This document shows, piece by piece, positions 1 through 57,747 of a stretch of 64,000 nt of DNA. The notes beneath the pieces are model-generated. The model did not search any database. It worked only from the letters and a program-made list of their open reading frames with translations, and was not told the origin of the DNA. Source of the stretch: Harmothoe impar (lineage: Eukaryota > Annelida > Polychaeta > Phyllodocida > Polynoidae); NCBI GenBank assembly GCA_947462335.1, contig OX381710.1:35401204-35465203 (forward strand), written 5' to 3'. The position numbers and the translations under genes were made by a program. The stretch's first letter is position 1; each line of letters starts with the position of its first letter.

Positions 1-2082
1 AGCCCTGTTACTCTCTCCGAGGAGCAGCTCCTCGAAGAGGAAGACATGGATGTTTCCATGTCCGCATCAGTCCTCACTGAGGCTGAAAAGCAGAAGATAT
101 ACGAAGAGGATCGTCTTCTAGCTCTGAAGCTAGAAGAGGAGGAAAACCAATATACCAAGGATGTGTGGGAGATGATCGGCAACCCGAATGTCGATCCGGA
201 CCACCACCCGAAGGATGAGAAACCAGATAAACTGGTGAGGTCAACTGGTAAGATTTGCTACGATGGGAGGGAGATGAATCTCCACCCGGACGTGATGTCC
301 CCCACGGAGATAGGCCTATCTAGACCTATCCCAGAAGACATAGTGGATATGTTACGCCAGTTTATTGATGTGGGAGCTCTCCGCATCATGCCCCCAGAGT
401 GGTTTCGCACCTGGGAAAATTTACAGCAAGGCCTCCGGGTGTGCAAAGCACTTCGGAAAGGTTTGTTCGACGCCGAGATGGCCGACGTCGGGGTGTGTGT
501 ACCCCGAATGACGCGCATCTCGGATGACCACGGGTGTGGGGCCTTCGGCGCCACGTCCCTTGCTGTAGGTTGCTACCGCAGGAACAATCCAGTAGGGATG
601 CTAGAACCGAAGTCGGTTGAGGGATATCGGGCCCTAATACGGTCCAATTTATCCTATGAAGTCTATCAGATAGACTACCACCGCATGAAAGCTATCATGG
701 GGGAGAAAGGCCTCAGCTGTCACGAAGGTATAGTCGAGACGGTGGAGGAGATGGTCAAGACCCGTACTAAGAGTTTGACCCAAGCAGAGGAGAAGGCTGC
801 AGCTAAAGCCAGCAGAGACATCCGAAAGGGTGACTCTGTAGCCTGGACAAGCAGTCCCCACGGTCAGGATATACGGACCGTGGTCGTTGGAGGGGGTGAC
901 TCCCCTTTCATCCAGCCTCGGGGTCGCCAAGCCCTGAGAAATGAGGCGGCAAGGATGAGGAGAGTACCCGACGCCCAGCGGATCATGACCGATGGGTCTG
1001 TATCAGATAGATCTGATGCAAGCAGTATGTCCCAGGGGAAGTCTGCTGGAGGGGAGGATGACATGGACATTTCTACTCCAAAATCACCTCCCCATACGAC
1101 GGATCCGGCTGTGAATGTCGCCCGATCCGACCCGACGCCTGACCCGAAGGTGGCTGCCGGACACCAGTCCGACGTCAGTTCGGGAAGTGAGTCGGGATCT
1201 GCCCTGGATAAGCACATCTGGAACAATGCCAGAGGTGGATTCCAGGGATTCATTCCCTCCTACTGGGGGGAATGTGCAAAAGAATCGGGGCGTTTCTCCA
1301 TCCCGCCCCACATAAATCTGAACGGGAGATCAGATGATGAGGATTGGTGTAGGACCACCAAACGAGATCCTCTCGTGAGCGAGTTTTACGAGGACTGGCT
1401 CAAGAAGATAGATTTCTTTCCGGAAACCTATTACACCAGGGATCAGAAGGCAAAGATCCGCTGGGCTATCCGACAGTGGGATAGGGACCACCTAGAATGT
1501 CCCTTCCAGAAATGCCAGTCATCTCTGGAATTACAGGTATCCTTCACCACTAGGGCAAGGTATCTACGCCACTTAGTGGAGAACCACACACACCACTACA
1601 TGGTGTACCAGTGTGATCCGGAGGGAGCAGGTACCTCTACCTGTTCGGGTCACCTGCACCCTAGGCGTGGACGCCTAATTAAGCACATGACCATGCTCCA
1701 TAATATTGGGGGTGGGGAGGCCCGAACCAAGGTAATGGCCCTGAATGAACGCGTGATCGACGAGTTCAGAGAAGTCCTGAAGAAAGACGCGAAGAGCCTT
1801 AATTCTTCTAAGGCCTATTTCTGTGAGGTAGCAGAAAGTAAGTCGAAGCTCACAGTATCGAGGTTCGCGAAGGTCCCGGGTTCGCGAAAGTTCGACCTGG
1901 ACCCGGATAAGTACCCTCCAGAGATGTTCCGTCGGTCTGGTAATCAAGGCCGAGGGAGAGGTGGGAGAGAGCCCGACCCTAGAGACTACCGAGGGCCGAG
2001 GACCGCCGAGAGGGGATTGGGGACGCTCTCATTCCACCAGCCCGGCAACCCATGTCAAAAGGGGAGGGACCCTCAGTCTTGA
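1..2082 (+). CDS. Zinc-finger ORF of a retroelement, 5' end outside window
   Basis: The frame is open from base 1, so the first ATG inside the window (46) need not be the true start; from it the protein is 678 residues. I do not recognise the family. An acidic N-terminal stretch leads into a folded-looking region at about residues 85-250. A Ser/Asp-rich linker runs from about 300 to 390. Two C2H2-type zinc-finger-like units lie at about 484-555 (C-x4-C and H-x4-H spacing in the first, C...C and H-x4-H in the second). The tail is rich in Arg and Gly, as in nucleic-acid-binding Gag C-termini. A nucleic-acid-binding structural role is inferred. It overlaps the next ORF by about 250 nt in another frame. 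Confidence 0.55.
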   Translation, partial: SPVTLSEEQLLEEEDMDVSMSASVLTEAEKQKIYEEDRLLALKLEEEENQYTKDVWEMIGNPNVDPDHHPKDEKPDKLVRSTGKICYDGREMNLHPDVMSPTEIGLSRPIPEDIVDMLRQFIDVGALRIMPPEWFRTWENLQQGLRVCKALRKGLFDAEMADVGVCVPRMTRISDDHGCGAFGATSLAVGCYRRNNPVGMLEPKSVEGYRALIRSNLSYEVYQIDYHRMKAIMGEKGLSCHEGIVETVEEMVKTRTKSLTQAEEKAAAKASRDIRKGDSVAWTSSPHGQDIRTVVVGGGDSPFIQPRGRQALRNEAARMRRVPDAQRIMTDGSVSDRSDASSMSQGKSAGGEDDMDISTPKSPPHTTDPAVNVARSDPTPDPKVAAGHQSDVSSGSESGSALDKHIWNNARGGFQGFIPSYWGECAKESGRFSIPPHINLNGRSDDEDWCRTTKRDPLVSEFYEDWLKKIDFFPETYYTRDQKAKIRWAIRQWDRDHLECPFQKCQSSLELQVSFTTRARYLRHLVENHTHHYMVYQCDPEGAGTSTCSGHLHPRRGRLIKHMTMLHNIGGGEARTKVMALNERVIDEFREVLKKDAKSLNSSKAYFCEVAESKSKLTVSRFAKVPGSRKFDLDPDKYPPEMFRRSGNQGRGRGGREPDPRDYRGPRTAERGLGTLSFHQPGNPCQKGRDPQS

Positions 2083-3172
2083 GGAACTGGACTCTCGTTA
2101 TTACACGGAGTCCTCTCATAGTGGTCGAAGCTATGAGGCATCTGTGGATAGATATGGCGATTATCCGGAGATGAACTTGTCGCCTGGACTAGAGTCCCAG
2201 ACGCTCGGCCAGACCCCCCAAGATACCCGACGGCGTGAGAATGAACTCGCCCGCCAGAGGGAGATCGATAGGGAGCTGGCGCGACGGGGACGTCGGAGTC
2301 CTGGGGAGGATTATGATTCCTCCCAATCCTGGTATGACATGGTGCGACATGTGGCGTCCACCTCGTCTGCCCAGGGGGGTGTCCTACCCGACGCTAGATA
2401 CCGAGGGGGCCCTACGGGTAGACCTTCGTCTGCCTCAGGACGTGCTGAACCAGCCGCCCCTTTGGGAATACACCAACAGGTGTTAAAGCATGCCGGTAGG
2501 GATGCTTCGCGGCACCAACAACAGCCGCCACCCCATAAGGCGTTTAAGCCTTCTCATCGGATCACCGGGCCAGGGGAGGACCCTATGAGACCACCCCCTC
2601 CGCCACCAAAAGTTCCAGTACCAGCGCCGGTGACACCACCGGTTAAGCCAGTTCCACCACCAGGGAAGCCGGTTGACGTTGGGGAACCAACTGGTGATCC
2701 TCCTGGGAAAGCCCAGGATGTCAAAACAAAGAGGGAGAAGCCTTTGGTGACTCTAAAGGTGGCACCAATAGCATCCTACTTTCCGAAGGATGCCAAACTG
2801 TCCAATCAGATTGGACAGGAAATTCTGGACGACTTCCAGAAGGAGCAACAGGCGATGGCCGAAGATTACCACAAAAGAGTGGTACAACACTTTGTGGAAG
2901 GCGTGAGGAAGTGTCACCAGAAGGAAAAGGATAACCTTCAGAAGGAGACTGCTGATGAGGTGGTTACCAAGACTAGGTTCTTGGAAGCACAGCGAGACAA
3001 AGCAGCTGGGCTAGAAGCTACAGTCCGGGAGGAATGTAGTGAGCTCCAGGAAGAAATCCGGGAGATGAAGGCAAAGTTTAAAGTTTGTCTCGGGATGAAA
3101 ATCTCCGACTGGGATGGGACCCTTGAGCAACTCAAGGATGCCATTCAGAAGAAGGAGGTACCCGAAGGTTAA
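1832..3172 (+). CDS. Second retroelement ORF, Pro-rich with coiled coil
   Basis: This frame opens right after a stop at 1829-1831 and ends at 3172. No ATG sits at its head: 1961 is a GTG, so independent initiation is doubtful. It lies in the +1 frame relative to the upstream ORF and overlaps it for about 250 nt, so it could be reached by a +1 ribosomal shift or have been separated from it by an indel. From 1961 the product is 403 residues: a charged Arg/Ser/Asp region, a proline-rich stretch at about residues 205-245, and a helical Glu/Lys-rich C-terminus (about 290-400) with coiled-coil character. No enzyme motif is visible and I do not recognise the family. Confidence 0.5.
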   Translation, partial: QKVSRSSQYRGSRRSRVRESSTWTRISTLQRCSVGLVIKAEGEVGESPTLETTEGRGPPRGDWGRSHSTSPATHVKRGGTLSLEELDSRYYTESSHSGRSYEASVDRYGDYPEMNLSPGLESQTLGQTPQDTRRRENELARQREIDRELARRGRRSPGEDYDSSQSWYDMVRHVASTSSAQGGVLPDARYRGGPTGRPSSASGRAEPAAPLGIHQQVLKHAGRDASRHQQQPPPHKAFKPSHRITGPGEDPMRPPPPPPKVPVPAPVTPPVKPVPPPGKPVDVGEPTGDPPGKAQDVKTKREKPLVTLKVAPIASYFPKDAKLSNQIGQEILDDFQKEQQAMAEDYHKRVVQHFVEGVRKCHQKEKDNLQKETADEVVTKTRFLEAQRDKAAGLEATVREECSELQEEIREMKAKFKVCLGMKISDWDGTLEQLKDAIQKKEVPEG

Positions 3173-3393
3173 AACAAATCCCTTCGGGCAACTGAATACA
3201 GCTGTAGTTGTTTCAGGGACGCCTTCGGCTATGGAAGGCGATGGTACATAGGAAGGGACTAGCCCTTCGTATCAAAAGAACCCTTAGGTTCTTGGATAAC
3301 GATAACAATTTTTACCAAGTGTTAATATTATTTCCACATATGTATACGTTTAAACAAAATTACATCTACATCAGTCTACCTTTTCTGGTAGAC

Positions 3394-3631
3394 ATGAAGA
3401 GGAGAGCACCTCACTCAGTCGTCCAAGATGAAGAGGAGAGCACCTCACTCAGTCGTCCAAGATGAAGAGGAGAGCACCTCACTCAGTCGTCCAAGATGAA
3501 GAGGAGAGCACCTCACTCACTCGTCCAAGATGAAGAGGAGAGCACCTCACTCACTCGTCCAAGATGAAGAGGAGAGCACCTCACTCAGTCGTCCAAGATG
3601 AAGAGGAGAGCACCTCACGTACTCGTCCCGA
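3394..3631 (+). repeat. 34-bp minisatellite, seven copies
   Basis: The unit begins ATGAAGAGGAGAGCACCTCA and recurs at 3394, 3428, 3462, 3496, 3530, 3564 and 3598. Copies are nearly identical (CAGTC versus CACTC variants) and the last is diverged at its end. It lies in the untranslated tail of the retroelement, between ORF2 and the LTR. Confidence 0.95.
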
Positions 3632-4544
3632 AGCAGATCCAGAGATCAGCCCACTACCCGACATTATTTAGTCGATATAGCACTTTTGTGAGGTCCTGCA
3701 GTATACCACTGTAGTTCCAGATTATTTATTAAAAATACATTCTCGTCCATGTTTCTAATATATATATTTATGGTGCTGATACACTACGATAGTCTATGAT
3801 ACTCAGGATATTACCAAAGATCTGTATAAACCATAACTGTGTTCAAACGTTGACCACTTCGGGTGGATGTAAATAGGAGTATGTATATCTAGAAGTAGTA
3901 GATATATTTTGTTATAGAAAACGGAGGTGATGAAGAAAATTTTGATTCTGGTGCGGAGAGAGGTTATCATGTATCCCTATGTATTTTTTTTTTTAGGCCT
4001 GTGAGTCCTTTTCAGGACTGGTAATAATTCTTCGGAATAGGTACACACTTGCCGATCATATTTTTAAAAGGTCCTTATCAGGACTATATAGGTAATTTTT
4101 AGAAGATAGTTACAATCTATTGGTAACTACTTCAGGTTCTACTAAAACGTATGAGTCATATCATAAGGTAACTATGACAGTGTAATGCCTTAATTTCAAT
4201 GATATATTGTTTATCATATATTACATATGACTAATTATAGTAAAACCCTTTTATGTATAGTGTATAGACAAACTACTTCTGGTTGTCAAACTATTTTTAT
4301 TATGAGTTTACTACTCAGGTTTTTACCACACCTAGTGTTGTCTAGGGGGGGGTAGTGTAGGGGTTTACTACGGTAATCATTTCTATCCAGGTGACCGAGG
4401 AGGGTTATTTCGGGTTGTTCCCGCCTGGCGTTAGTGTGGGCGGTATCCCAGAGGGGGCGACTGTCCTCTCTCGGGTACTGCGCACCACGTTTCAGGCGGG
4501 AACTTACCAACATGTGACCATGTCGATTTCATATCCAAAGGGGG

Positions 4545-47242: not shown

Positions 47243-47248
47243 CCTGTG
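47243..47248. repeat. Left 6-bp target site duplication of the Polinton
   Basis: CCTGTG immediately before the left terminal inverted repeat; the same six bases follow the right end at 57742-57747. Six-base duplications are characteristic of Polinton/Maverick insertion. Confidence 0.93.
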
Positions 47249-47660
47249 AGTAGTATAGTATGTATCGGAACGGGACTATAGTTAACTACTGTTTATTACT
47301 CAATCGACCTGCAGCCAATCAGAGGCCTCCATTTGGTCACGTGACCGGAAGTGACCTACTTAGGGGATTAGTGGTGACGTCACGTGACCTAGTTAGCCAA
47401 TCAGAGGCCGCCATTTGGTCACGTGACCGGAAGTGACGTCATATGACCTACTTATGGACCGGAAGTGACGTCATATGACCTACTTAGGGGACCGGAAGTG
47501 ACGTCATATGACCTAATTTAGGATCACGTGACCGGAAGTGACCTGATGAGTCACGTGACCGGAAGTGACGTCACATGACCTAATGGCCAACCGGAAGTGA
47601 GTGACCTCATTGAGGATCACGTGACCGGAAGTGACCTGATTGACCACGTGATCGGAAGTA
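47249..47660. repeat. Left terminal inverted repeat with dense transcription-factor sites
   Basis: It matches the right terminal repeat in inverse. It holds eight CCGGAAGTGA (ETS) sites, four of them extended to CCGGAAGTGACGTCA (ETS plus cAMP-response element). It also has at least seven CACGTG E-boxes, often as GTCACGTGAC, two CCAATCAG boxes and one GCCGCCATTTGG (YY1-like). The (GAA)8 tract at 47,659-47,682 follows it only on the left side. Confidence 0.9.
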
Positions 47661-47767
47661 GAAGAAGAAGAAGAAGAAGAAGTTTTTTGTTTAGGAAGTG
47701 AGGGTCTTTAGGATCACGTGACTGGAAGCGACGTCGTCACATGAGTGACGCTTTAAGAGACTGCGCG

Positions 47768-47812
47768 ACTTACTAGTAAAAGAAGACGTATGAAAATAAA
47801 AACACAACAATA
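47768..47812 (-). terminator. Inverted cassette downstream of the polymerase gene
   Basis: On the minus strand this reads TTGTTGTGTTTTTATTTTCATACGTCTTC then ACTAGTAAGT, the same as the segment directly after the death-domain stop (56,679-56,720). Because each copy lies just 3' of an outward-reading gene, it may be a shared 3'-end or polyadenylation cassette; that role is inferred. Confidence 0.5.
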
Positions 47813-47897
47813 ATTTATTTTATTTTTTTTATTAAATAAACACTCTATTTTTGAAAAGATGCACTCAATCAAGCAATAACACGCTTATTTTTTTTTT

Positions 47898-50800
47898 TCA
47901 TATCTCTAAAGGACTCGTTGTCACACCGTCAGAATGCACGCGACGCTTATAATACAAGTAGCGCACGCCGTCTTTCTCTATGGTGTAGGTGACCATTTTG
48001 TTTCGCACCACTTTGAAATTTCTATTTACAGCAATGAGAGTTTTTCGTTGGCGAAGAACATCCAAGAAGTCGTCTGGTTCCTGAGGGTTTTGTTTCTTCT
48101 GTACGCCTTTTGCACTCCATTTTTTGGATTTTCTTTCACCGGTGTCGCTGACTCGATCGTAGCAAATGTAAGTCTTAGGGTTGAGACTTAGGATCCCGTC
48201 ACCTTCCCACTCCGCTTTCATGAGCCCCGAAGTTCTCAGATCGTGAAGGTACCGTCTCTCACAACATCCGCCGGGCGGCGGACACCATTCTCGCACTCTT
48301 TCCGTTTTTGTCTTCACGAAAAGCTCTAAGTGATCGTCGCACACCGCTGTCGGAAGCCACTTTCGTTTCTCTCTGAAGTACGTCTCTCTCAGGCGAGGTT
48401 TGACTAGGTCATCCAACGTGTCACCGCTGAGAGCCATGTAAAGACTGTCGGTGTCCATTTGACAAAGGGCATAATCGCGCCGATCGACGAATCTATCCAA
48501 GAAGTCGTATGTGAACTCTAACATTTTCAACTTCGCGTACTGGTATACCATGAACCCTATTTGAATAGGGAGGTTGTTCTTGACTGTTTTCGGTTGTAGT
48601 TCGACTTCAAACAGATCGGAACTCAACTCGGACGCCTTTTTGAAGCGCCACGAATTGGCCAATAGTTCGAACTTCCGACTGTCAGTGTATCTCACCGCCG
48701 TGTGTTTTTCTTTGTTGCAGATTGTTTTACCGTACGTAGCGTTTCCCATTAACTTGTAACAGTCTGACAGAATTTTCTCGTTCTCGTTCACGTCGCCACG
48801 TCTTCGCGCCGCCGTTACTTCGTCCACGAAACCGGCAAAGGAGCGTTTAGGTAGGTATTCTACGACCAGCTGCACTTTGGTGACTATCAAACCGTGCTCT
48901 AAATACCACTTGAGAAGCGGCGTTCCCAAGAGAATATTTTTTCCGTGGTAACTCCCTATCAGACATCTCTGAGGCGTGTTCAACAGCTTTTCTTCCTGCG
49001 CAAAGTCTGACATGTGAGGTCCTATGTCCGATTTTGAAACGGTCACGTTCTTGAAAACGGGGGTCATTTCTTCGAAGTAGTCTCGTAGGTGAGGCGGCGT
49101 AGTGATGTCCACTTGAACTAAACCGAACATTTTCCCGTCTTTCACAGCGGAAAGGATGTCGCTCTCGCTCATCGCGTTTCGAGACACTTTCAAAGCGTCA
49201 ACCTTCCAGCGTTGTTGGGAGGCCTTAACCCGCTCATCTCGACGCTTCATCTCTCTCCATTCGCACTCCCACACGACGACCAGCTTGTAACCTAGCGCTT
49301 TCAAGTACGCGCTTACTCTAGTCGTTCTGTCGCGTCTCTCCTCCCTCAGTGAAGCGCACTGATATCGGTGCGACGGTATGCACTCGTGAGCGTGGAACCA
49401 ACACCCGTGAAACTGGAAAACCGTATTAGAGGCCGCGTGAAACCCGTCCACGCGAATTCTCCGACAGCCTACAACCATCTCGCCGCCGTTCAAAGCGTGG
49501 CGCAGTTTCACGTCGCGGTCGTGCTCTACGAAGCGTAACCACTCCAAAGTGCTGTGAGAGTTTCTTTGCCTAATTTCGGGCTTGAACTTGGTCTCAGGTC
49601 GTCTCACCGCGTAATAGCCCGTGCAGTGCGCTTCGCTCATGCAGCGCAAGTACAGAGAGTTAGCGTCTAGTCCTAGGATGTGTTGGCACGGTCTCGCTTC
49701 TTCGCCGTACTTGTGCTCCCTTATCCGCGTGGTGCCCTTCTCGTGAAATCTATGGAAGATGATGGAAGGACCGCCGACTAGATTTTCTTTGATCAGAGCG
49801 TGGAGGACGGCGTCGAACTGGGGGAACGTTGTGAACGCGTCTTCTAGGTTTTGGAAGAGGAACCGTAAAGTCAAACCGGCGAGAGAAACTCCGTCTTTCA
49901 ACATGTCAATGCCGCGATCTTGGAAAAATTTAGCGTGATTTTTCAGAGCTTCTATGAAAGGTTTGACGTCTTTGTTGTTGTAGTGGATCAAGTAATCTTC
50001 CATAGTTTGCATCTTCTCGTCGGACCAAACTTTCTGACATGCGGCGTAGTCGGATTCGGACATTTTGATGCCCGTCAGTTCGCTGTCAAAAGCCGATCTC
50101 GGTGGCAGCGTTCTGTTTGCCAGTTTCCTGGTAGACGTCATCCATTCGTAAGGAAAGTGACCTTTCTCTTCGTTCCTGGTGAAAGCTCGCAAATAGGTCG
50201 CGTAGTTGTAACCGGGTGCCAAATAGTTGACTACGTCCAAGAAAACCGTGTGCTGTGTGTAAACCGCCAAGTATCTTTATGACGCTGAATTCTTGGTTTC
50301 TTCGGTCTCCGGAGGCAAAGAACGAGTGAAGGCGTATTTTGATCAGGTTCAAGTCGTAACGCCCCGAGTTGAAGCCCACGACTGGAGCTTGACGGATGTA
50401 TCTCAGAAGACGCTTCTTCAGTTGAACTAACGGGTGTCTGGTCTGAGCCGCAGCGAAGCCGCCTGGAGAAGGGGTGAACGTCGCCTCCTCCAGCAGGAGA
50501 GCTTCACCTATCGCCGCATCTAACTTCGCTAACGTCGGTCGGTAAAGTTCTAGCACAGCTTCCCCGATGACTTTGGCGTTCTCGTTTATGTGATTTAAAA
50601 CTCGGTCCAACAAGGGGTCGGAATCTGCGTCGGATTCTCTGACGAAGCAGACGGGCCCCTCCCACCCCGGAAAGTCGGATGCGACGCTAGCCGACAAAGG
50701 GACGTGATCCCACAGCAGGGACACGTGTTCCGTCGACGGTTCTTTGCACGGTCTGAAGAAAGCCTCGAAATCGAAGGCGATCTTGTAAGGGTAGATTCCG

Positions 50801-52002
50801 GAATGTCCGTCGGGGGGAAAAATGGAGAAGTCTGCTAGCGCTTCGAAAATCGTTCTCGAATTTTGGTAGATGCCACCTACGTAGCGCAACTTGACTTGTC
50901 GGCAAGAGGAAAGCTGGTTCCTGTGTCTCTTCAGCAAGAACTCGGTGGTGAACGCCGCCTTACACTTGCAACATTCGTATATGCCCGCGTACGCGTTGAA
51001 GTCCGTGACGAGAGAGACGTGCAAACCGCCTTTCGCCGTCAGGTGTAGGTTGACTTTACCTCGGGCGGCCAGAGTTCTGGAAGGCGGTCTGATCAGAGTA
51101 ACGCGTCTTCTCAACTTCCGCCCCGGCACTTGACGCGACGCGGTGTAGACCGCTATTTGTACATCAAACAAGTTCTCTAACGCGGGTAAGTCGCGGATGT
51201 TCAGACCCGGAAAGGATTCAGGTGTGGCAGCGGGACAGAACTGACGTAACAAATCTGAAGCGCGCTTGCTGGTATAAGTGAAAGGAAATGCAGCGGAAGA
51301 TGCAGAGGTTGTCCTTGTTGGGAAAATCTAACACGCCGCTTCTCTTTCCAACTCGACCGGCCTGAGTGATCCTACCGCCTATGGGGAATTCCCCCGGTCC
51401 CATGTAAACGCAAATGTTCAAATTGGTAGGAAAAAGAACGTGCCACTTGGTGTCAGCGTCGCAAAGTTTCCGTACTTCCTCGCAAGCGACGGTGTTTTCC
51501 ATCTTTGAGAGGAGCTCTTCCAAAGTTTCTGAATTAGTTATAGTAGGGAGCGGTTGTATGAGAGTTGCGTTGTTCTGGGAGGCGTGAAAGTAGCGCAGTT
51601 TGCTCTTGTCTTCTCTGTGTTGTAAGAGTAAGCCTACCGAGAAACCCACTTTGTATCTGAATCTTTGTGTCAAGTGAATGCGACGCATAGTATCTACAGC
51701 GTCACTCAACTCGCCGGTTGGTAGCCTGAAGTTTGTTACACTCACGCGAGTCCCGTGCATCCTGACGCCCGTTTGTATCGCAGGCCAATTCGCCGTGAAC
51801 GTTTCCTCCCCGTTCGGTACAGCACGTATGCGCGGAGGGATGGTCACCCCGTCCAGAGATTCGCGTCGACAGGCGATCTTTCGGCAATCGCCTTCGCCGC
51901 ATAGAGGGCAAAACTTATTACTCTACAACTTTCTACGTGTCTCTCGTGGTTGTACGGTCTTTTAAAAATTTTGAAACACTTTTCGCATACGTACTGTGTC
52001 AT
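47898..52002 (-). pseudogene. Protein-primed-type family B DNA polymerase, three frameshifts
   Basis: The gene starts with ATG at 52,002, opening with a C2H2-like zinc finger (MTQYVCEKCFKIF, then H-x3-H and C). It continues in other frames after shifts near 51,920, 51,250 and 50,275. The second frame has a further C-x2-C...C cluster. The third carries a zinc finger, exonuclease motif I (DFE) and motif II (GFNSGRYDL). The fourth (790 residues) holds exonuclease motif III (YNNKDV), polymerase motif A (DANSLY, near 49,660), motif B (KLMGNATYGK, near 48,745), motif C (MDTDSLY, near 48,450) and KTY. All catalytic motifs are present, so the gene is recently broken or the shifts are assembly errors. 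Expected function is replication of the element from a terminal protein. Total length would be about 1,350 residues. Confidence 0.88.
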
Positions 52003-52029
52003 GTTTTTTTCACTCAGTTACCAACTACT

Positions 52030-52150
52030 TAGCCGTCTAACTATCTATCTATCTATCAATCTATCTGTCTATCTATCTATCTATCAATCTATTGTCTATC
52101 TATCTATCTATCTATCTGTCTGCTGTCTGTGTATCCGTCTGTCTGTCTCA
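52030..52150. repeat. (TCTA)n microsatellite
   Basis: Imperfect tetranucleotide tract (TCTA with TCAA and TCTG variants) in the gap between the polymerase start and the stop of the next minus-strand gene. Confidence 0.95.
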
Positions 52151-52202
52151 TACAGCGTACGTCAAACGCTGTGTGTGTGCGCGCTTGAGCGTTGAGCGTC
52201 TC

Positions 52203-54685
52203 TCATTCCGAATCTATACCGAGATATTTGAGAATAATCTCTGTTTTGTCATCCAACTCTTTGAGCGCTCTGGCGGACAGCGTCACCCCCTGCTGTGTGG
52301 GTTTTTTGTCAGGACCTTCGTACTTGCGCACGTGGACGAGGTTCTTACCGCTGTAGTAGCTCACAGCTGTGTACACTTCGCCCTCCTCATCCAGCACTGC
52401 GAACCAGGGGGTGTGATTAGGTCTTCCTTGCGCGGCCGCTGTGTCGCGTATGCGCACCACTGCGCGGATATCGGCGATGCGTGCTATAAGCTCGCGCAGC
52501 GCGTCGGCCGTGAAGTGCACTCGCTTGCTTCTGGTCAGAGACGCCTCTTTCACCTGGCCGTCTTTTGTGTAGCGCGGCCTCCTAGACAGTCTAGCCACGT
52601 CCTCCCAGATCTCCAGCGTCAAAGCTCCGTCTAAGCAGAACTCTAACCCGAGAAGACGGGAGAAGGGTTTCTCTGCTTCTTCTCGTCCATCTCGTTCTTT
52701 TTCTTGTATTTTTCTCTTCTTAGTAGGCCTTGTTGTTCTGGAACTCACCTTAGAACGTTTCACACCCGCAGGAAGAGTAACACCATCAGCGTGAGCTGAA
52801 TCAGCAGCAGAACCGATAGCAGGAGCAGCGTCAGCGCTGGTGGTATCCGAGGCCTCGTTCTTGGAACAGAGCAGCCACACGCCGTCGGTGCTGAGTGTAG
52901 CGGTAGAAGATGAAGCGCCGCCGCCCTCGTAAGGTGGCGGTGAGGGCAGTCGCCACGGACCGGACGGGGCGCTACTAGTGGAAGTGAGGTCGAAAGGTCG
53001 AAGAGGGGAGCCGAAAAACGTACCGCCCACCCCTTTCCCTTCGGGTTCTTCGTACGCCTCGTCGTCAGCGTCGTTCTCTGTCTCACCCTGTTGCTGCTGC
53101 TCCCCACTCAACAAAAAACGTTATTTAACATTTGCAAACGTTTCTACAGGGTTTGCAGGAGAACGTTTTTTTAAAAACGTTGTTTAAACGTTTCTATATA
53201 GTTTATATTACGAACGTTGCCATCTAGAATGTTATTTAACCTTTCTATAAGGTTTAGAGGAGAATGTTAGTTTCCATGACGTTATATGATGTTTCTACAG
53301 GGTTTAGATAAAAACGTTGGTATTTAAAATGTTATTGAACATTTCTAAATGGTTTAGATGGAAACGTTTTTATCCAATACATTATTGAACATTTCCACAT
53401 GGTTTGGATAAAAAACGTTTGCATATAAACGTTATTTTGATGTTAATTAACGTTTCTATTGATGCCAGTATCTTCTACCAGAAGGCAGCACTATCCATTG
53501 AATGGTATTTTGCTGGTCCTTCACCACATTACCTCATACAAATGGTGCCATAATGATGATTATCCTAAACTATTCTAATCAGTGTAGTTGCAAAATTTCA
53601 AATCAAATCCTTTTCCACAGACTAGCAGCAAGATGAATGGTATTTATGTAGTCTAGGATTGGAATATACATGTATACACCCATTTTGTGGGTATCTAAAA
53701 AATATATAGTCACATCAGTTCATATGAGGATTTGTAATACCTAAAGGTATCAAAGGCTTCTTTGTGTAGCCTGACTGCTCAAAGGTAGTGAATGGTTTTG
53801 AATCTTACTGATGGTTGTTTGCATGATCTACTATTACAGCCCCAGAACACAGTCTCTATGGCTAAACCAATTTTTTTTTAAAAAGGATCAAACCAAAAAT
53901 ATATATGATGCTGGTATGCTCATTTTTCAGCTTAGTTCGGTGCCCTCTAGTCAACAGAAAAAACGTTATTTTGACCCTTAAAAAATGCTATTTTGATCAT
54001 CGAAAAACGTTATTTAACATGGGGATAAGGTTGCACATCCAAACGTTTTTATAAAACGTTTATTTACGTTATTTGGAGTCAACGTTTTTACGTAAAACAA
54101 ACGTTAAAAACGAACGTTTTTCAATCCTTCAGGGAACGTTTTTTCCAGGGTTAAATAACGTCTTTTTGTTGAGTGGGTCCTCCTCCTCCTCTTCTTCTCG
54201 GTTTAGGGGCTGAGTGTCCGAATAGCTGTCACTCTCAGCGCGAGCGGCGTCGAGGGCGTCGGTCGATGTAGTGGTGGAGGAGAGGGGCTGTGCAATGTGC
54301 GGCAGGTCATCAAAGTCATCAACAGTAGTGGGGAGGTAAAAACCCGGTTGCCAGTACTGCGCTGTGCCAGGAGCGTTGTCGTCAGTAGTAGTAGCGGTAG
54401 CAGCAGGTGCAGCAGAAGCAGCAGCAGCAGCAGCAGACGCAACAGTAGCAGGCGCAGCAGCCTCAGCAGGCGCAGCCGTAGCAGGTGCAGCAGTAGCAGG
54501 TGCAGCAGCAGCAGCAGCAGCAGCCGGAGCCCGAGGATCACCAGCAGCAGCAGCAGCAGCAGGCGGAGCGGCAGTAGCAGCGGCAGCACGCTTAGCAGCA
54601 ACGTGTACCGTCGCGAGTGTAACAACGTCGCTAGCACGACGACTACTACCAGTAGTACTACTACCACTACTACTACTACTACTAG

Positions 54686-54722
<37 letters not shown>

Positions 54723-54878
54723 GCTGCGAGCGCTCGCTACAGCGGGAGGGTGATAAGACCAAGCGGCTGCGGCGGTAGTCTCATTTTCAGTAGCAAGAGG
54801 AGGCACTGACGCTAAACGAGCGCTGTTCCGCGTAGTCTTCTTGTTCTTGGACGGCGCTAGGTGTTGTCTTTTGCTCAT
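52203..54878 (-). pseudogene. Low-complexity protein with PC4-like C-terminus, split by a nested element
   Basis: The preferred start is the ATG at 54,878 (MSKRQHLAPSKNKK); another ATG lies eight codons upstream at 54,902. The N-terminal half is basic, then poly-Ser, then Ala/Pro-rich, then acidic. A 1.07-kb insertion at 53,103-54,177 interrupts an acidic-to-Gln tract. The frame is the same on both sides and the insertion plus its duplication is 1,077 bp, a multiple of three, but stops inside it end the protein. The C-terminal half has a basic KKRK stretch and a final domain (about the last 130 residues) with GKNLVHVRKYEG and GVTLSARALKEL, which resembles the PC4/p15 single-stranded-DNA-binding fold; a first, weaker copy may precede it. 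A role in replication or transcription of the element is inferred. Uninterrupted length would be about 530 residues. Confidence 0.65.
53103..54177. mobile_element. Nested non-autonomous element rich in AACGTT
   Basis: The ends CCCACTCAACAAAAAACGTT and (inverted) CCCACTCAACAAAAAGACGT pair over about 27 bp with one indel. The flanking duplication is two or three bases (TC or TCC). The left third is a tandem series of about 60-bp units carrying AACGTTATTTAACATTTCTA-like and GGTTTAGA motifs. It has no ORF. A related end (CCCAGTAAACAAAAAAACGT) occurs alone near 36,908. Confidence 0.85.
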
Positions 54879-54960
54879 GGTGGTGACTGTAGAGAGCAGC
54901 AAAAGAATGAGTGAGTGAATGGAGGTTTCCAGGCCCCTTATATACGCCTTCTCGCTTCTA

Positions 54961-55330
54961 GAGCTAAGCTACTTACTGACCCTGTTCAGCTGCCGCCGGC
55001 TGGCCGGCGGCCATTCACAAAGAGAAACAAAAGACATAAGGCATGACGTTTTCAGCTGGATCCCTTTCCCCCCTTTTGAGAGATCGACTGTCATGAGCTA
55101 AGCCGCTTACCACCCTGTTCAGCAATTCAACGCGCATTAGCTGTATAAAGGATTAAGCGGTTGCTGCCGTCGACTGACCGGCGGCCATTCACAAAGACAT
55201 AAGGTATGACGTTTTCAGCTGGATCCCTTTCCCCTCTTTTTTTGAGGGATCCGCTGTCATGAGCTAAGCTACTTACCACCCTGTTCAGCAATTCAGCGCG
55301 CGTTAGCTGTATAAAGGATTAACGGTGATG
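54961..55330. promoter_or_regulatory. Direct-repeat control region between divergent genes
   Basis: Three tandem copies begin at GAGCTAAG (54,961; 55,095; 55,261) and share CTTACNNACCCTGTTCAGC, GGCGGCCATTCACAAAG, GACGTTTTCAGCTGGATCCC and TGTCATGAGCTAAG. Spacings are 134 and 166 bp. TGTATAAAGGATTAA appears in two copies, near 55,143 and 55,309. GTTTTCAGCTGG recurs once more near 55,677. The region lies between the start of the minus-strand PC4-like gene and the plus-strand death-domain gene, so a bidirectional promoter or replication control site is plausible. Confidence 0.65.
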
Positions 55331-55817
55331 AGCTTAGAGTGTGTATACAAAAAAAACTACAGGAGGCGTGTGGCGTGAAGCAGGACCCCCCTAAGACGAA
55401 CGTGTCTGTCTGTGAGTAGAGGCGTGTGCATGTGGTGAGCGACTTAAGTGTAAGACAAAAAAAAATCACCACCTCCTGCCGTGGTGAGTAGACCGGGCCG
55501 GCCAGGCGGCGGCCGGCTAGTTCAATAGGGAGGGGTGACAGCTGACTAAGGCTGTGCATGAAAAAAATCCGATTTTCACCTGACCTCTGACGTTTGTTAC
55601 AATGAATGTCAGAGGGAGGGAGACGTCCTCAGGTAGGGGGTAGGAGGTAAGGCTATGGATGAGGAAGAAACACCGTTTTCAGCTGGTCTCCACGGTTAGC
55701 GATGACATACCCCTCGTCATCTAAGCTCTTAAGGGGCGGAGCGGCTGAAAAAGCGTCATGCGGACAGGTCGCTAGACAGCTGGAGTGCTGTTGGAAATGG
55801 GATTAAACTCCCTCTGT

Positions 55818-55825
55818 ATAAAAGC
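55818..55825 (+). promoter_or_regulatory. TATA box of the death-domain gene
   Basis: TATAAAAG preceded by CTCTG, 113 bp before the ATG. The inferred leader contains a CCACCG/CCG trinucleotide tract (about 55,876-55,922). Confidence 0.65.
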
Positions 55826-55889
55826 TCTGATTTCTGTTGGAAAAAAACCATATCGCCTCTGACCACAGTAACGTCTACTACCACCACCA

Positions 55890-55924
<35 letters not shown>

Positions 55925-55937
55925 AAGACGAGACGAG

Positions 55938-56678
55938 ATGGCTCAAGCTATTCCACTTTCAAGCTCGCCTTCACCGCCTTGTCCACCTGAAAAAAAGTTA
56001 ATGCGGCTTGACGACGTGAGACGCGCGAGGCAGACCGATGGGGAGAACAGAGAGGTAGGACAGCGGCGGTTAGCCTATAGCGATGCCTTGCTTCGTCAAC
56101 TAGGTAAAGAGTTGAGCGGCTGTTGGAGAGAGTTGGGCAGTAGCTTAAAAGTTACCGCCGCCCGTATGGATGCTCTAGTAGAGCGCAGTGTCAAGACACC
56201 GGAGGAGCTGTGTACGGCGATGTTCCGAGTCTGGTGGGGTGAAACCCCGCATCGTCATAGATGGGGAGAGCTCGGTCGCGTCTTCACCCGCATTAGACGC
56301 GTGGAACTGTTGGCTCAGTGGATGTCCCTTCTCCACAGACAGGGGTTGGATTTCGAAAACCCCGACTCGCGCGCGATGCATAAGCACTTGGGCACCCTCG
56401 GCAGACGTCTAGGTAGCAGGTGGAAAGAGGTGGGGGACCATTTAAAATTGTCGCCTGAGAGGTTAGATAAGATCGCTGAAGAATGCGAATACGGAGGAAG
56501 TCCCGCTGAGTGGGCCTTCCGAGTGTTGAAAATGTGGCAAGATGAAGCTGACGGTGCCGGCGGTACACCTTTTGAACTCCTTCGAGTGTTGACTGAGGAC
56601 ATGGGAAAGTTTGACCTCGGCATCGCGATATTACTTGACTTTATCAAGCAAGAAACAACGAGAACGACGGACATGTGA
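55938..56678 (+). CDS. Tandem death-domain protein of the Polinton
   Basis: This intact 246-residue ORF has a good start context (G at -3 and +4) and a TATA box upstream. After a Pro/Ser-rich and basic leader come two death-fold modules. The first, about residues 48-132, contains LGKELSGCWRELGSSLKV, RMDALVE and FRVWW. The second, about 145-237, contains LGRRLGSRWKEVGDHLKL, RLDKIAEE and VLKMW. The spacing of Trp, the LG...W..(L/V)G core and the Leu-rich last helix fit the death domain of FADD- and Pidd-type adaptors. No protease, kinase or caspase-recruiting partner domain is present. A role in binding host death-domain proteins, as adaptor or decoy, is inferred. It is the only Polinton gene here without visible damage. 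Confidence 0.85.
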   Translation: MAQAIPLSSSPSPPCPPEKKLMRLDDVRRARQTDGENREVGQRRLAYSDALLRQLGKELSGCWRELGSSLKVTAARMDALVERSVKTPEELCTAMFRVWWGETPHRHRWGELGRVFTRIRRVELLAQWMSLLHRQGLDFENPDSRAMHKHLGTLGRRLGSRWKEVGDHLKLSPERLDKIAEECEYGGSPAEWAFRVLKMWQDEADGAGGTPFELLRVLTEDMGKFDLGIAILLDFIKQETTRTTDM

Positions 56679-56720
56679 ATTGTTGTGTTTTATTTTCATA
56701 CGTCTTCTTTATTAGTAAGT
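56679..56720 (+). terminator. Inverted cassette downstream of the death-domain gene
   Basis: ATTGTTGTGTTTTATTTTCA begins one base after the stop codon and continues to TTAGTAAGT. It is the inverse of 47,768-47,812 at the other end of the element, showing that the element's terminal symmetry reaches the gene 3' ends. Confidence 0.5.
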
Positions 56721-56826
56721 AAAAAAAAATATCATAACAATTAAGACGCGCGCCCTCTTAAAGTGTCACTTCCTCCAGTCGCAGCTGATCGCCTCATCGA
56801 GGCACGTGATAAACAAAAAAAAATGA

Positions 56827-56868
56827 AGAGACACGCTTCTTCCTCTCGAGAGGAAGAAGCGTGTCTCT
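56827..56868. repeat. 42-bp perfect palindrome
   Basis: The arms meet at CTCGAG (56,845-56,850) and read AGAGACACGCTTCTTCCTCT outward-in, with exact complement on the other side. Flanking A-rich (left) and T-rich (right) tracts extend the symmetry loosely. It could form a cruciform or a transcript hairpin. Confidence 0.95.
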
Positions 56869-56924
56869 CGATTGAAATCTTTTTCTTTTCTTTTTTTCTT
56901 AAAAGAGACAAACGCCCCTTAGAG

Positions 56925-57250
56925 TGCCCCCCCACCCCCCTAGAGTGCCCCCCTCCCCCCTCCCCCCCTCCCCCCCACCCGCCCCATGCATCCTAAAAGC
57001 GCCCCCCTCCCCATGCATCTTAAAGGGGCCCCCCTCCCCTTCCCTCCCCTCCCCTCCCCTCCCCCCCCCTTATACACTCTAAAGAACGCTTCTACCTAGT
57101 TCAATAAGTCACTTCCAGTCGCTCGTAAAACAATAAAAAATGAAAAAAAAAACAAACTTATATCGTAGTGTTTTTTATTAGTTTACCGAAAAAAATCAGA
57201 GACTCGCCTCCTCCTCCTCTCCTTCTCCTCCTCCTCCTCCTCCTCCTCCA
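56925..57250. repeat. C-run and (TCC)n low-complexity block in the right end
   Basis: Repeated runs of C6-C9 joined by TAGAGTG, CATGCAT or TTAAAG (56,928-57,070) and a (TCC)n tract (about 57,207-57,250) separate the inner inverted cassette from the right terminal repeat. Nothing like it occurs at the left end. Confidence 0.85.
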
Positions 57251-57324
57251 AAAAAAAAGATATCACATTTTAAAGCGCGTGACCCCTTAAAGACGCTCAT
57301 CTCTTCATTAAGTCGCGTGACGTC

Positions 57325-57741
57325 ACTTCTTCTTCCGGTCACGTGATCAATCAGGTCACTTCCGGTCACGTGATCCTCAATGAGGTCACTCACTTCCGGT
57401 TGGCCATTAGGTCATGTGACGTAACTTCCGGTCACGTGACTCATCAGGTCACTTCCGGTCACGTGATCCTAAATTAGGTCATATGACGTCACTTCCGGTC
57501 CCCTAAGTAGGTCATATGACGTCACTTCCGGTCCATAAGTAGGTCATATGACGTCACTTCCGGTCACGTGACCAAATGGCGGCCTCTGATTGGCTAACTA
57601 GGTCACGTGACGTCACCACTAATCCCCTAAGTAGGTCACTTCCGGTCACGTGACCAAATGGAGGCCTCTGATTGGCTGCAGGTCGATTGAGTAATAAACA
57701 GTACTTAACTATAGTCCCGTTCCGATACATACTATACTACT
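57325..57741. repeat. Right terminal inverted repeat
   Basis: It is the inverse of 47,249-47,660 with scattered differences (for example AGTACTG for AGTAACTACTG-side bases). It carries the same ETS-CRE, E-box, CCAAT and YY1-like sites in mirror order and ends at AGTATACT...TACTACT. Confidence 0.9.
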
Positions 57742-57747
57742 CCTGTG
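57742..57747. repeat. Right 6-bp target site duplication of the Polinton
   Basis: CCTGTG directly after the right terminal repeat, identical to 47,243-47,248. Confidence 0.93.

What the first reader, a model, noticed from the sequence alone, without database searches (positions are those of the whole stretch)
47249..57741. A 10.5-kb Polinton with polymerase and death-domain cargo but no capsid, ATPase, protease or integrase
The ends are textbook Polinton (AG terminus, long inverted repeats, 6-bp duplication), yet the cargo is only a family B polymerase, a PC4-like protein and a tandem death-domain protein. Loss of virion genes with retention of replication genes plus a host-signalling gene suggests a compact replicon that depends on a full-size relative for integration, or a distinct lineage.
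Basis: partly seen in the sequence, partly recalled or inferred. Interest (0 to 1): 0.88.

Follow-up and report, generated by a model that had tools for sequence, protein, structure and literature searches.

The report
Small Maverick element without an integrase
This is one of dozens of near-identical small mobile DNA elements that carry their own DNA-copying enzyme but no recognisable integration or shell genes, in a genome full of larger virus-like relatives, one of which has almost the same ends, so the small ones probably hitchhike on it.

Summary
In detail: 47249-57741 has (AGT)2//(ACT)2 ends, 416-bp inverted repeats, a CCTGTG duplication, and a family B polymerase, PC4-like and death-domain gene, with no integrase, ATPase, protease or capsid found. 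This copy is broken (polymerase in three frames; a private 1,074-bp insertion in the PC4-like gene).

At least 70 loci of this family were listed. Both ends were mapped in 27 copies, all short (26 at 8.0-9.8 kb).

Two larger Maverick families live in the same genome. F2: one copy read in pieces is 18.6 kb with integrase, protease, ATPase-like and death-domain genes; its polymerase is only 44% identical. F3, seen at one end only: capsid-like and protease genes, 150 of 150 scored protease places 100% identical, and a terminus matching the compact one at 96-97 of the first 98 bases, then diverging. F3's integrase and polymerase were not seen.

So the death gene is not unique cargo, and this is not a simple deletion of F2. 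Best reading: a Maverick lineage that replicates itself, lost integrase and virion genes, and uses the termini, hence probably the integrase, of F3. Trans-mobilisation and packaging are inferred, not shown.

The parts
47243..47248 (.). target site duplication CCTGTG, left copy
   Evidence: sequence
47249..47664 (+). left terminal inverted repeat; its first 98 bases match the F3 terminus at 96; carries 8 CCGGAAGT, 5 TGACGTCA and 7 CACGTG sites
47898..51922 (-). family B DNA polymerase gene, in this copy over three reading frames (ORFs 47898-50276, 50086-51327, 51218-51922); exonuclease and polymerase motifs present in the pieces
52203..53103 (-). 3' part of the Ala-rich/PC4-like gene (Pfam PC4 7.6e-5, under its cut-off)
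53104..54177 (.). private nested insertion, inverted ends CCACTCAACAAAAA.., TCC on both sides; absent from 18 of 18 sibling loci
54178..54878 (-). 5' part of the Ala-rich/PC4-like gene (from the first Met of the ORF, by eye)
54879..55937 (.). central region between the divergent genes, with a 1.8-copy 166-bp tandem duplication (55030-55326)
55938..56678 (+). tandem death-domain protein, 246 aa
   Evidence: Pfam Death 3.7e-7; homologous to the F2 death protein
57326..57741 (-). right terminal inverted repeat; its first 98 bases from the outer end match the F3 terminus at 97
57742..57747 (.). target site duplication CCTGTG, right copy

Best explanation
A compact Maverick (Polinton) lineage without integrase and virion genes. 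Shown: its anatomy, its copy number, two larger Maverick families in the same genome, and a terminus nearly identical over 98 bases to that of one of them (F3). Inferred: it copies itself as linear DNA by protein priming with its own PolB, helped by the PC4-like protein as a single-strand binder. The integrase of the F3 family (not seen here) recognises the shared terminus and inserts the copies with 6-bp duplications. The death-fold protein, which F2 also encodes, would blunt or redirect host death signalling during replication. Possibly the capsids of F3 or F2 also package it, making it a satellite.
For: At least 70 distinct loci. Both ends mapped in 10, 16 of 20 and the window; 15 of 15 testable duplications match. 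Integrase within 25 kb: 0 of 34 compact-type PolB, 0 of 40 compact terminal repeats, 31 of 35 F2 PolB (capped list). F2: rve 1.3e-10 and Chromo 6e-9, Peptidase_C5 3.8e-5, Death 2.3e-13; 113 of 113 scored integrase places 99-100% identical, 112 without a stop. F3: terminus 96-97 of 98 bases identical to the compact one, capsid-like and protease genes (Peptidase_C5 4.9e-5); 150 of 150 scored protease places 100% identical, of 2,308 candidates. A third kind of end (L022, L008) shares 84-85 of the first 86 bases. 27 of 34 scored compact-type PolB places have no internal stop (best-scoring places only).
Against: No mobilisation was observed, and no integrase was seen in F3: only its last 1.5 kb and 1.9 kb further in were read. 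F2, where the integrase was seen, shares only the first 9 bases of the tip and short internal words with the compact repeat. All searches are capped (integrase 113 of 8,484 candidates, PolB 34 of 7,223 and 35 of 6,863, F3 protease 150 of 2,308). A DNA search with the F3 terminus returned nothing, not even itself, so the DNA searches undercount. In an unselected look PolB was in one frame over its full length in 4 of 18 sibling loci (some pieces are cut). Selection tests are weak: pooled dN/dS 0.44 (Death) to 0.84 (PC4 N-part); shared and single variants do not differ (Fisher p 0.12), and single variants in Death are nonsynonymous-rich, 30 to 6. One degenerate copy, L023, has an unmatched 1.2-kb stretch with 330 stop-free codons, unidentified. 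Structure models were too poor to use.
Confidence: 0.72

Rival explanations
1. Internal deletion derivative of F3, the abundant family with nearly the same terminus.
For: 96-97 of the first 98 bases identical and virion genes in F3; F3 polymerase not seen.
Against: Beyond 98 bases the terminal repeats differ, and the F3 stretches read (L025:1-1467, L053) match the compact element only in repeat-like terminal words and one 44-base stretch. If F3 carried a compact-type PolB, its many copies should have shown near compact PolB hits: 0 of 19 compact-type PolB on C1-C7 lie within 25 kb of a listed F3 protease (capped lists).
Confidence: 0.14
2. Internal deletion derivative of F2, the full-size family read in pieces.
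For: Same class of ends, a homologous death gene, shared words in the terminal repeats.
Against: PolB 44% identical and in a separate, strongly supported clade; DNA matches to F2 are simple repeats, a 45-base stretch and 139 bases of polymerase at 73%.
Confidence: 0.03
3. Autonomous element that integrates by an unrecognised activity of its own, for example the Vsr-like segment of PolB.
For: Weak Vsr endonuclease similarity in PolB, E 0.0019; 35 of 50 ORFs not scanned.
Against: Residues of that segment (F872, G874, C875, H878, E920, C921 of P0001) are invariant in 24 PolB relatives, so it is a general PolB feature; 6-bp duplications and (AGT)2 ends are those of integrase-bearing Mavericks (PMC8097293 section 7).
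Confidence: 0.06

Closest known systems
Intact vertebrate Mavericks (Polintons), Barreat and Katzourakis 2021, PMC8097293 (sections 6 and 7 and passages read)
   Same: (AGT)2//(ACT)2 ends, 6-bp duplications, inverted repeat within their 46-1,447 bp range, protein-primed-type PolB
   Different: theirs are 12.7-24.6 kb with eight (seven in Xenopus tropicalis) conserved ORFs including int, atp, pro and capsid genes; here 8.0-9.8 kb (window 10.5) with three genes. Their mining took INT and pPOLB hits on one contig 4-40 kb apart, so elements without an integrase would be missed
Polintons lacking capsid, protease and ATPase together (nine elements in a set of 72), Krupovic 2014, PMC4028283 (section 4 read)
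   Same: concerted loss of virion genes
   Different: the section read does not say that the integrase is lost too
F3 Maverick family of the same genome (end seen at C2:95189507)
   Same: terminus identical at 96-97 of 98 bases
   Different: capsid-like and protease genes; diverges after 98 bases; integrase and polymerase not seen
F2 Maverick family of the same genome (copy C6:55493294-55511864)
   Same: (AGT)2 ends, words in the terminal repeat, tandem death-domain gene, Ala-rich protein next to PolB
   Different: 18.6 kb, integrase, protease, ATPase-like and capsid-like genes; PolB 44% identical
Adintoviruses (PMC11071296, passages read)
   Same: animal PolB/Maverick kin
   Different: defined there by PolB with an OTU-like N-terminus, Hexon and rve-chromo integrase; the last two were not found here
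Virophages and satellite viruses (recalled; listing only)
   Same: would work like a satellite if a helper's capsid packages it
   Different: own polymerase but neither capsid nor integrase

Membership tests
Maverick/Polinton | (AGT)2//(ACT)2 ends, long inverted repeats, 6-bp duplication | tested here: met
   15 of 15 testable duplications match
Maverick/Polinton | family B polymerase of the Maverick clade | tested here: met
Maverick/Polinton | rve integrase inside the element | tested here: not met
   (15 of 50 ORFs); F2 integrase matches 0 of 41 compact sequences; 0 of 34 and 0 of 40 places with one within 25 kb (capped)
Maverick/Polinton | capsid, ATPase and protease genes | tested here: not met
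   one search found protease and capsid-like matches in 1 of 41 sequences (L025), outside the compact copy
Simple deletion derivative | a full-size parent with near-identical ends and near-identical shared genes | tested here: inconclusive
   F2: no; F3: ends yes over 98 bases, shared genes not seen
Adintovirus | OTU-like N-terminal domain in PolB | tested here: inconclusive
   CxFRC motif present, no Pfam OTU hit
Adintovirus | Hexon and rve-chromo integrase | tested here: not met
Satellite virus | propagation depends on a helper's proteins | not testable with these tools
   only shared termini and co-residence shown

The most novel reading that the evidence does not exclude
A vertebrate-type Maverick satellite: a lineage with its own replicase that wears the termini of an abundant, seemingly very young full-size Maverick (F3), lives off that family's integrase and capsids, has spread to at least 70 loci, and, like F2, keeps a tandem death-domain gene, an undescribed Maverick gene that acts on the host.
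Probability: 0.38. Interest if true: 0.85.

Novelty: new variant of a known kind. Interest (0 to 1): 0.64.

Why it matters
Non-autonomous transposons usually keep little but their ends (recalled). Here the replicase is kept and integration and virion genes are missing, in a genome with at least 150 listed places of one identical Maverick protease gene and 113 near-identical integrase genes of another family. Shared termini on elements with different insides make trans-integration, and perhaps packaging, by an animal Maverick directly testable. Mining for integrase plus polymerase misses such elements. A tandem death-domain gene emerges as a Maverick gene. In the held library no paper joined Polinton with death domain (0) or Maverick with death domain to the point (1, unrelated by title), nor used the six phrases for non-autonomous, mini- or defective Polinton/Maverick (0).

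Tried and rejected
Contig lengths as a sign of compact elements in other samples: dropped, since P0006 is 99% identical to the F2 PolB (18.6-kb element) yet lies on a 10.1-kb contig.

F2 as the helper: my first reading, weakened on checking, when one search showed F3 beside a compact copy with a far better matching terminus. Odds changed for that reason: main reading from 0.70 to 0.72, satellite reading from 0.35 to 0.38, and deletion from a lineage other than F2 now has a named candidate.

IMG/VR scans with PolB, a PolB alignment and the death protein found no relative.

Whole-genome family searches with PF00770 and PF21738 found nothing and their controls were silent. PF00770 does match the F2 and F3 proteases scanned alone, so those negatives say little.

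The capsid-like F2 protein (437 aa) had no Pfam or PDB sequence support; it is named by its place beside the protease.

AlphaFold models of the death and PC4-like proteins reached mean pLDDT 43 and 49, so no fold search was made.
Full report
OBSERVATION. The element at 47249-57741 is real. Two 416-bp inverted repeats are about 99% alike, the tips read AGTAGT..ACTACT, and CCTGTG lies outside both. End motif, 6-bp duplication and repeat length are those of intact vertebrate Mavericks in PMC8097293 (sections 6, 7 read). Pfam finds a family B polymerase, a PC4-like segment below its cut-off and a death domain. In all 15 of 50 ORFs over 60 aa were scanned.

THE WINDOW COPY. PolB and the PC4-like gene run leftward, the death gene rightward. 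PolB lies in three frames. The Ala-rich and PC4-like ORFs are one gene: 12 of 18 sibling loci hold the matching stretch in one frame. A 1,074-bp insertion splits it here and is missing from 18 of 18 sibling loci. The polymerase pieces keep ExoI-III and motifs A, B, C (names recalled; positions).

THE FAMILY. The genome (1.51 Gb, unnamed) gave 40 near-perfect hits to the terminal repeat, the window's own included, 40 of 173 candidates being scored. I examined 18 sibling loci over up to 10 kb (L009-L028, two loci held twice) and end pieces of 20 more. In 10 of the first set both ends lie in the piece, 7,989-9,784 bp apart, 10 of 10 duplications matching. In the second set the far end lay 8.1-9.7 kb away in 16 of 20, and 4 of 4 testable duplications match; 4 showed no far end. 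Unmatched stretches over 200 bp inside copies: 239 bp in L027, 260 bp between two tandem ends in L011/L024, and 0.7 and 1.2 kb in the degenerate L023; those in L022 and L025 lie outside the compact copies. Synonymous divergence between copies is 0.9-1.9%: a recent spread. PolB was in one frame over its full length in 4 of 18 loci.

THE DEATH GENE. Open over its alignable length in 15 of 19 sequences that reach it, window included; one of the other four (L024) is cut by the end of the piece. The protein search returned three clusters, 100, 78 and 55% identical, beside PolB clusters of 98, 78 and 69% and PC4-like ones of 96, 74 and 79% (the last over 28% of the query). This suggests, without proof, that the three genes travel together in more than one lineage. 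Selection tests are weak or mixed.

FAMILY F2. P0018 as query found 35 of 35 scored places with one open frame of 1,364 or 1,379 aa at 59%. One copy, C6:55493294-55511864, read in four stretches, spans 18,571 bp with AGTAGTATATAG tips and CCTGAC on both sides. It encodes an integrase (rve, chromo), an ATPase-like protein (weak AAA hits), a death-domain protein, a DUF5662 protein, an adenain-like protease and a 437-aa protein taken as capsid by position. 113 of 113 scored integrase places are 99-100% identical, 112 without a stop. An integrase lies within 25 kb of 31 of 35 F2 PolB, but of 0 of 34 compact-type PolB and 0 of 40 compact terminal repeats (the integrase list holds 113 of 8,484 candidates). 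F2 PolB is 44% identical to that of the compact family, in another strongly supported clade. The death proteins are homologous over 188 residues (26%, 2e-12). The terminal repeats share AGTAGTATA and the words GGAAGTGACGTCAC, CGGAAGTGACCT, ATATGACCTACT, AGCCAATCAGA (0 of 500 resamples reached the longest). The compact repeat holds 8 ETS-, 5 CRE- and 7 E-box-type sites against 0.01, 0.01 and 0.24 in shuffles (names recalled), so host factors could explain the shared words. The PC4-like counterpart in F2 rests on position only.

FAMILY F3, FOUND ON CHECKING. A tblastn of twelve F2 proteins against 41 compact sequences found no integrase or ATPase-like match, but protease and capsid-like matches in one, L025. 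They lie outside the compact copy, in a neighbouring element that ends at L025:1467. Limits: the F2 death protein also matched 0 of 41, so only close relatives would show, and the control for one protein (p312) was not among the subjects. The neighbour's terminus equals the compact one at 96 (left) and 97 (right) of the first 98 bases and then diverges; F2 matches the compact ones at 36-37. Its protease scores Peptidase_C5 4.9e-5, and 1,951 further bases hold more of the capsid-like gene, 39 and 34% identical to F2's. Its protease as query gave 150 of 150 scored places at 100% identity, of 2,308 candidates, all on contigs C1-C7, 45% of the genome: a capped list of a very abundant, very young family. 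A DNA search with its terminus returned nothing, not even itself. A further kind of end, identical in L022 and L008 over 258 bases, matches the compact one at 84-85 of 86 bases and then diverges; its inside is unknown. So several kinds of element share one terminus on different insides.

MECHANISM. Shown: anatomy, insertion signature, copy number, recent spread, shared terminus with an abundant Maverick that has virion genes. Inferred: protein-primed replication by its own polymerase with the PC4-like protein as single-strand binder, and integration in trans by the integrase that serves the shared terminus (0.72). Speculative: packaging (about 0.38) and suppression of host death signalling. 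It works like a satellite that brings its own replicase; by membership it meets the end, duplication and polymerase criteria of Mavericks and fails the integrase and virion criteria, so I file it as a non-autonomous Maverick lineage.

PRIOR WORK. PMC4028283 (section 4 read) reports nine elements, in a set of 72 Polintons, lacking capsid, protease and ATPase together; loss of the integrase is not reported there. PMC8097293 required integrase and pPOLB hits together. PMC6431247 and PMC11071296 were seen as passages. Searches found nothing to the point; two searches were seen as listings.

Noticed in passing
L025:1-1467 and L053: Full-size-type Maverick F3 directly beside a compact copy: capsid-like and protease genes and a compact-type terminus; at least 150 identical protease places in the genome.
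   Followed up: partly
L022:9743-10000 and L008:2633-3416: Further elements start here with a compact-type terminus (84-85 of 86 bases), identical to each other over 258 bases and different inside; content unknown.
   Followed up: partly
window 53104-54177: Private 1,074-bp insertion with inverted CCACTCAACAAAAA ends and TCC on both sides; superfamily not identified.
   Followed up: partly
L030:4455-5138 (minus strand): F2 encodes a tandem death-domain protein beside its ATPase-like gene, possibly one of the 'PM/PZ' proteins of PMC8097293; not tested against them.
   Followed up: partly
L030:5427-6077 (minus strand): F2 encodes a DUF5662 protein (Pfam 1.6e-21).
   Followed up: no
L023:41-813 and 2817-3985: A near-perfect terminal repeat abuts a second, 71% similar one before a degenerate compact copy; an unmatched 1.2-kb stretch there has 330 stop-free codons, unidentified.
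   Followed up: partly
L011 / L024 (C2:107723326 and C2:107725125): Two compact terminal repeats in tandem 1.8 kb apart in the same orientation.
   Followed up: no
C12:34472994 and C12:34481628: Two F2 integrase genes only 8.6 kb apart.
   Followed up: no
L031:561-3541: Retrotransposon-like ORFs (zinc-knuckle and endonuclease-like, by eye) just outside the F2 copy; no Pfam hit for the two scanned.
   Followed up: no
window 1832-3172: 446-aa ORF in a GC-rich stretch with weak coiled-coil matches only; not identified.
   Followed up: partly
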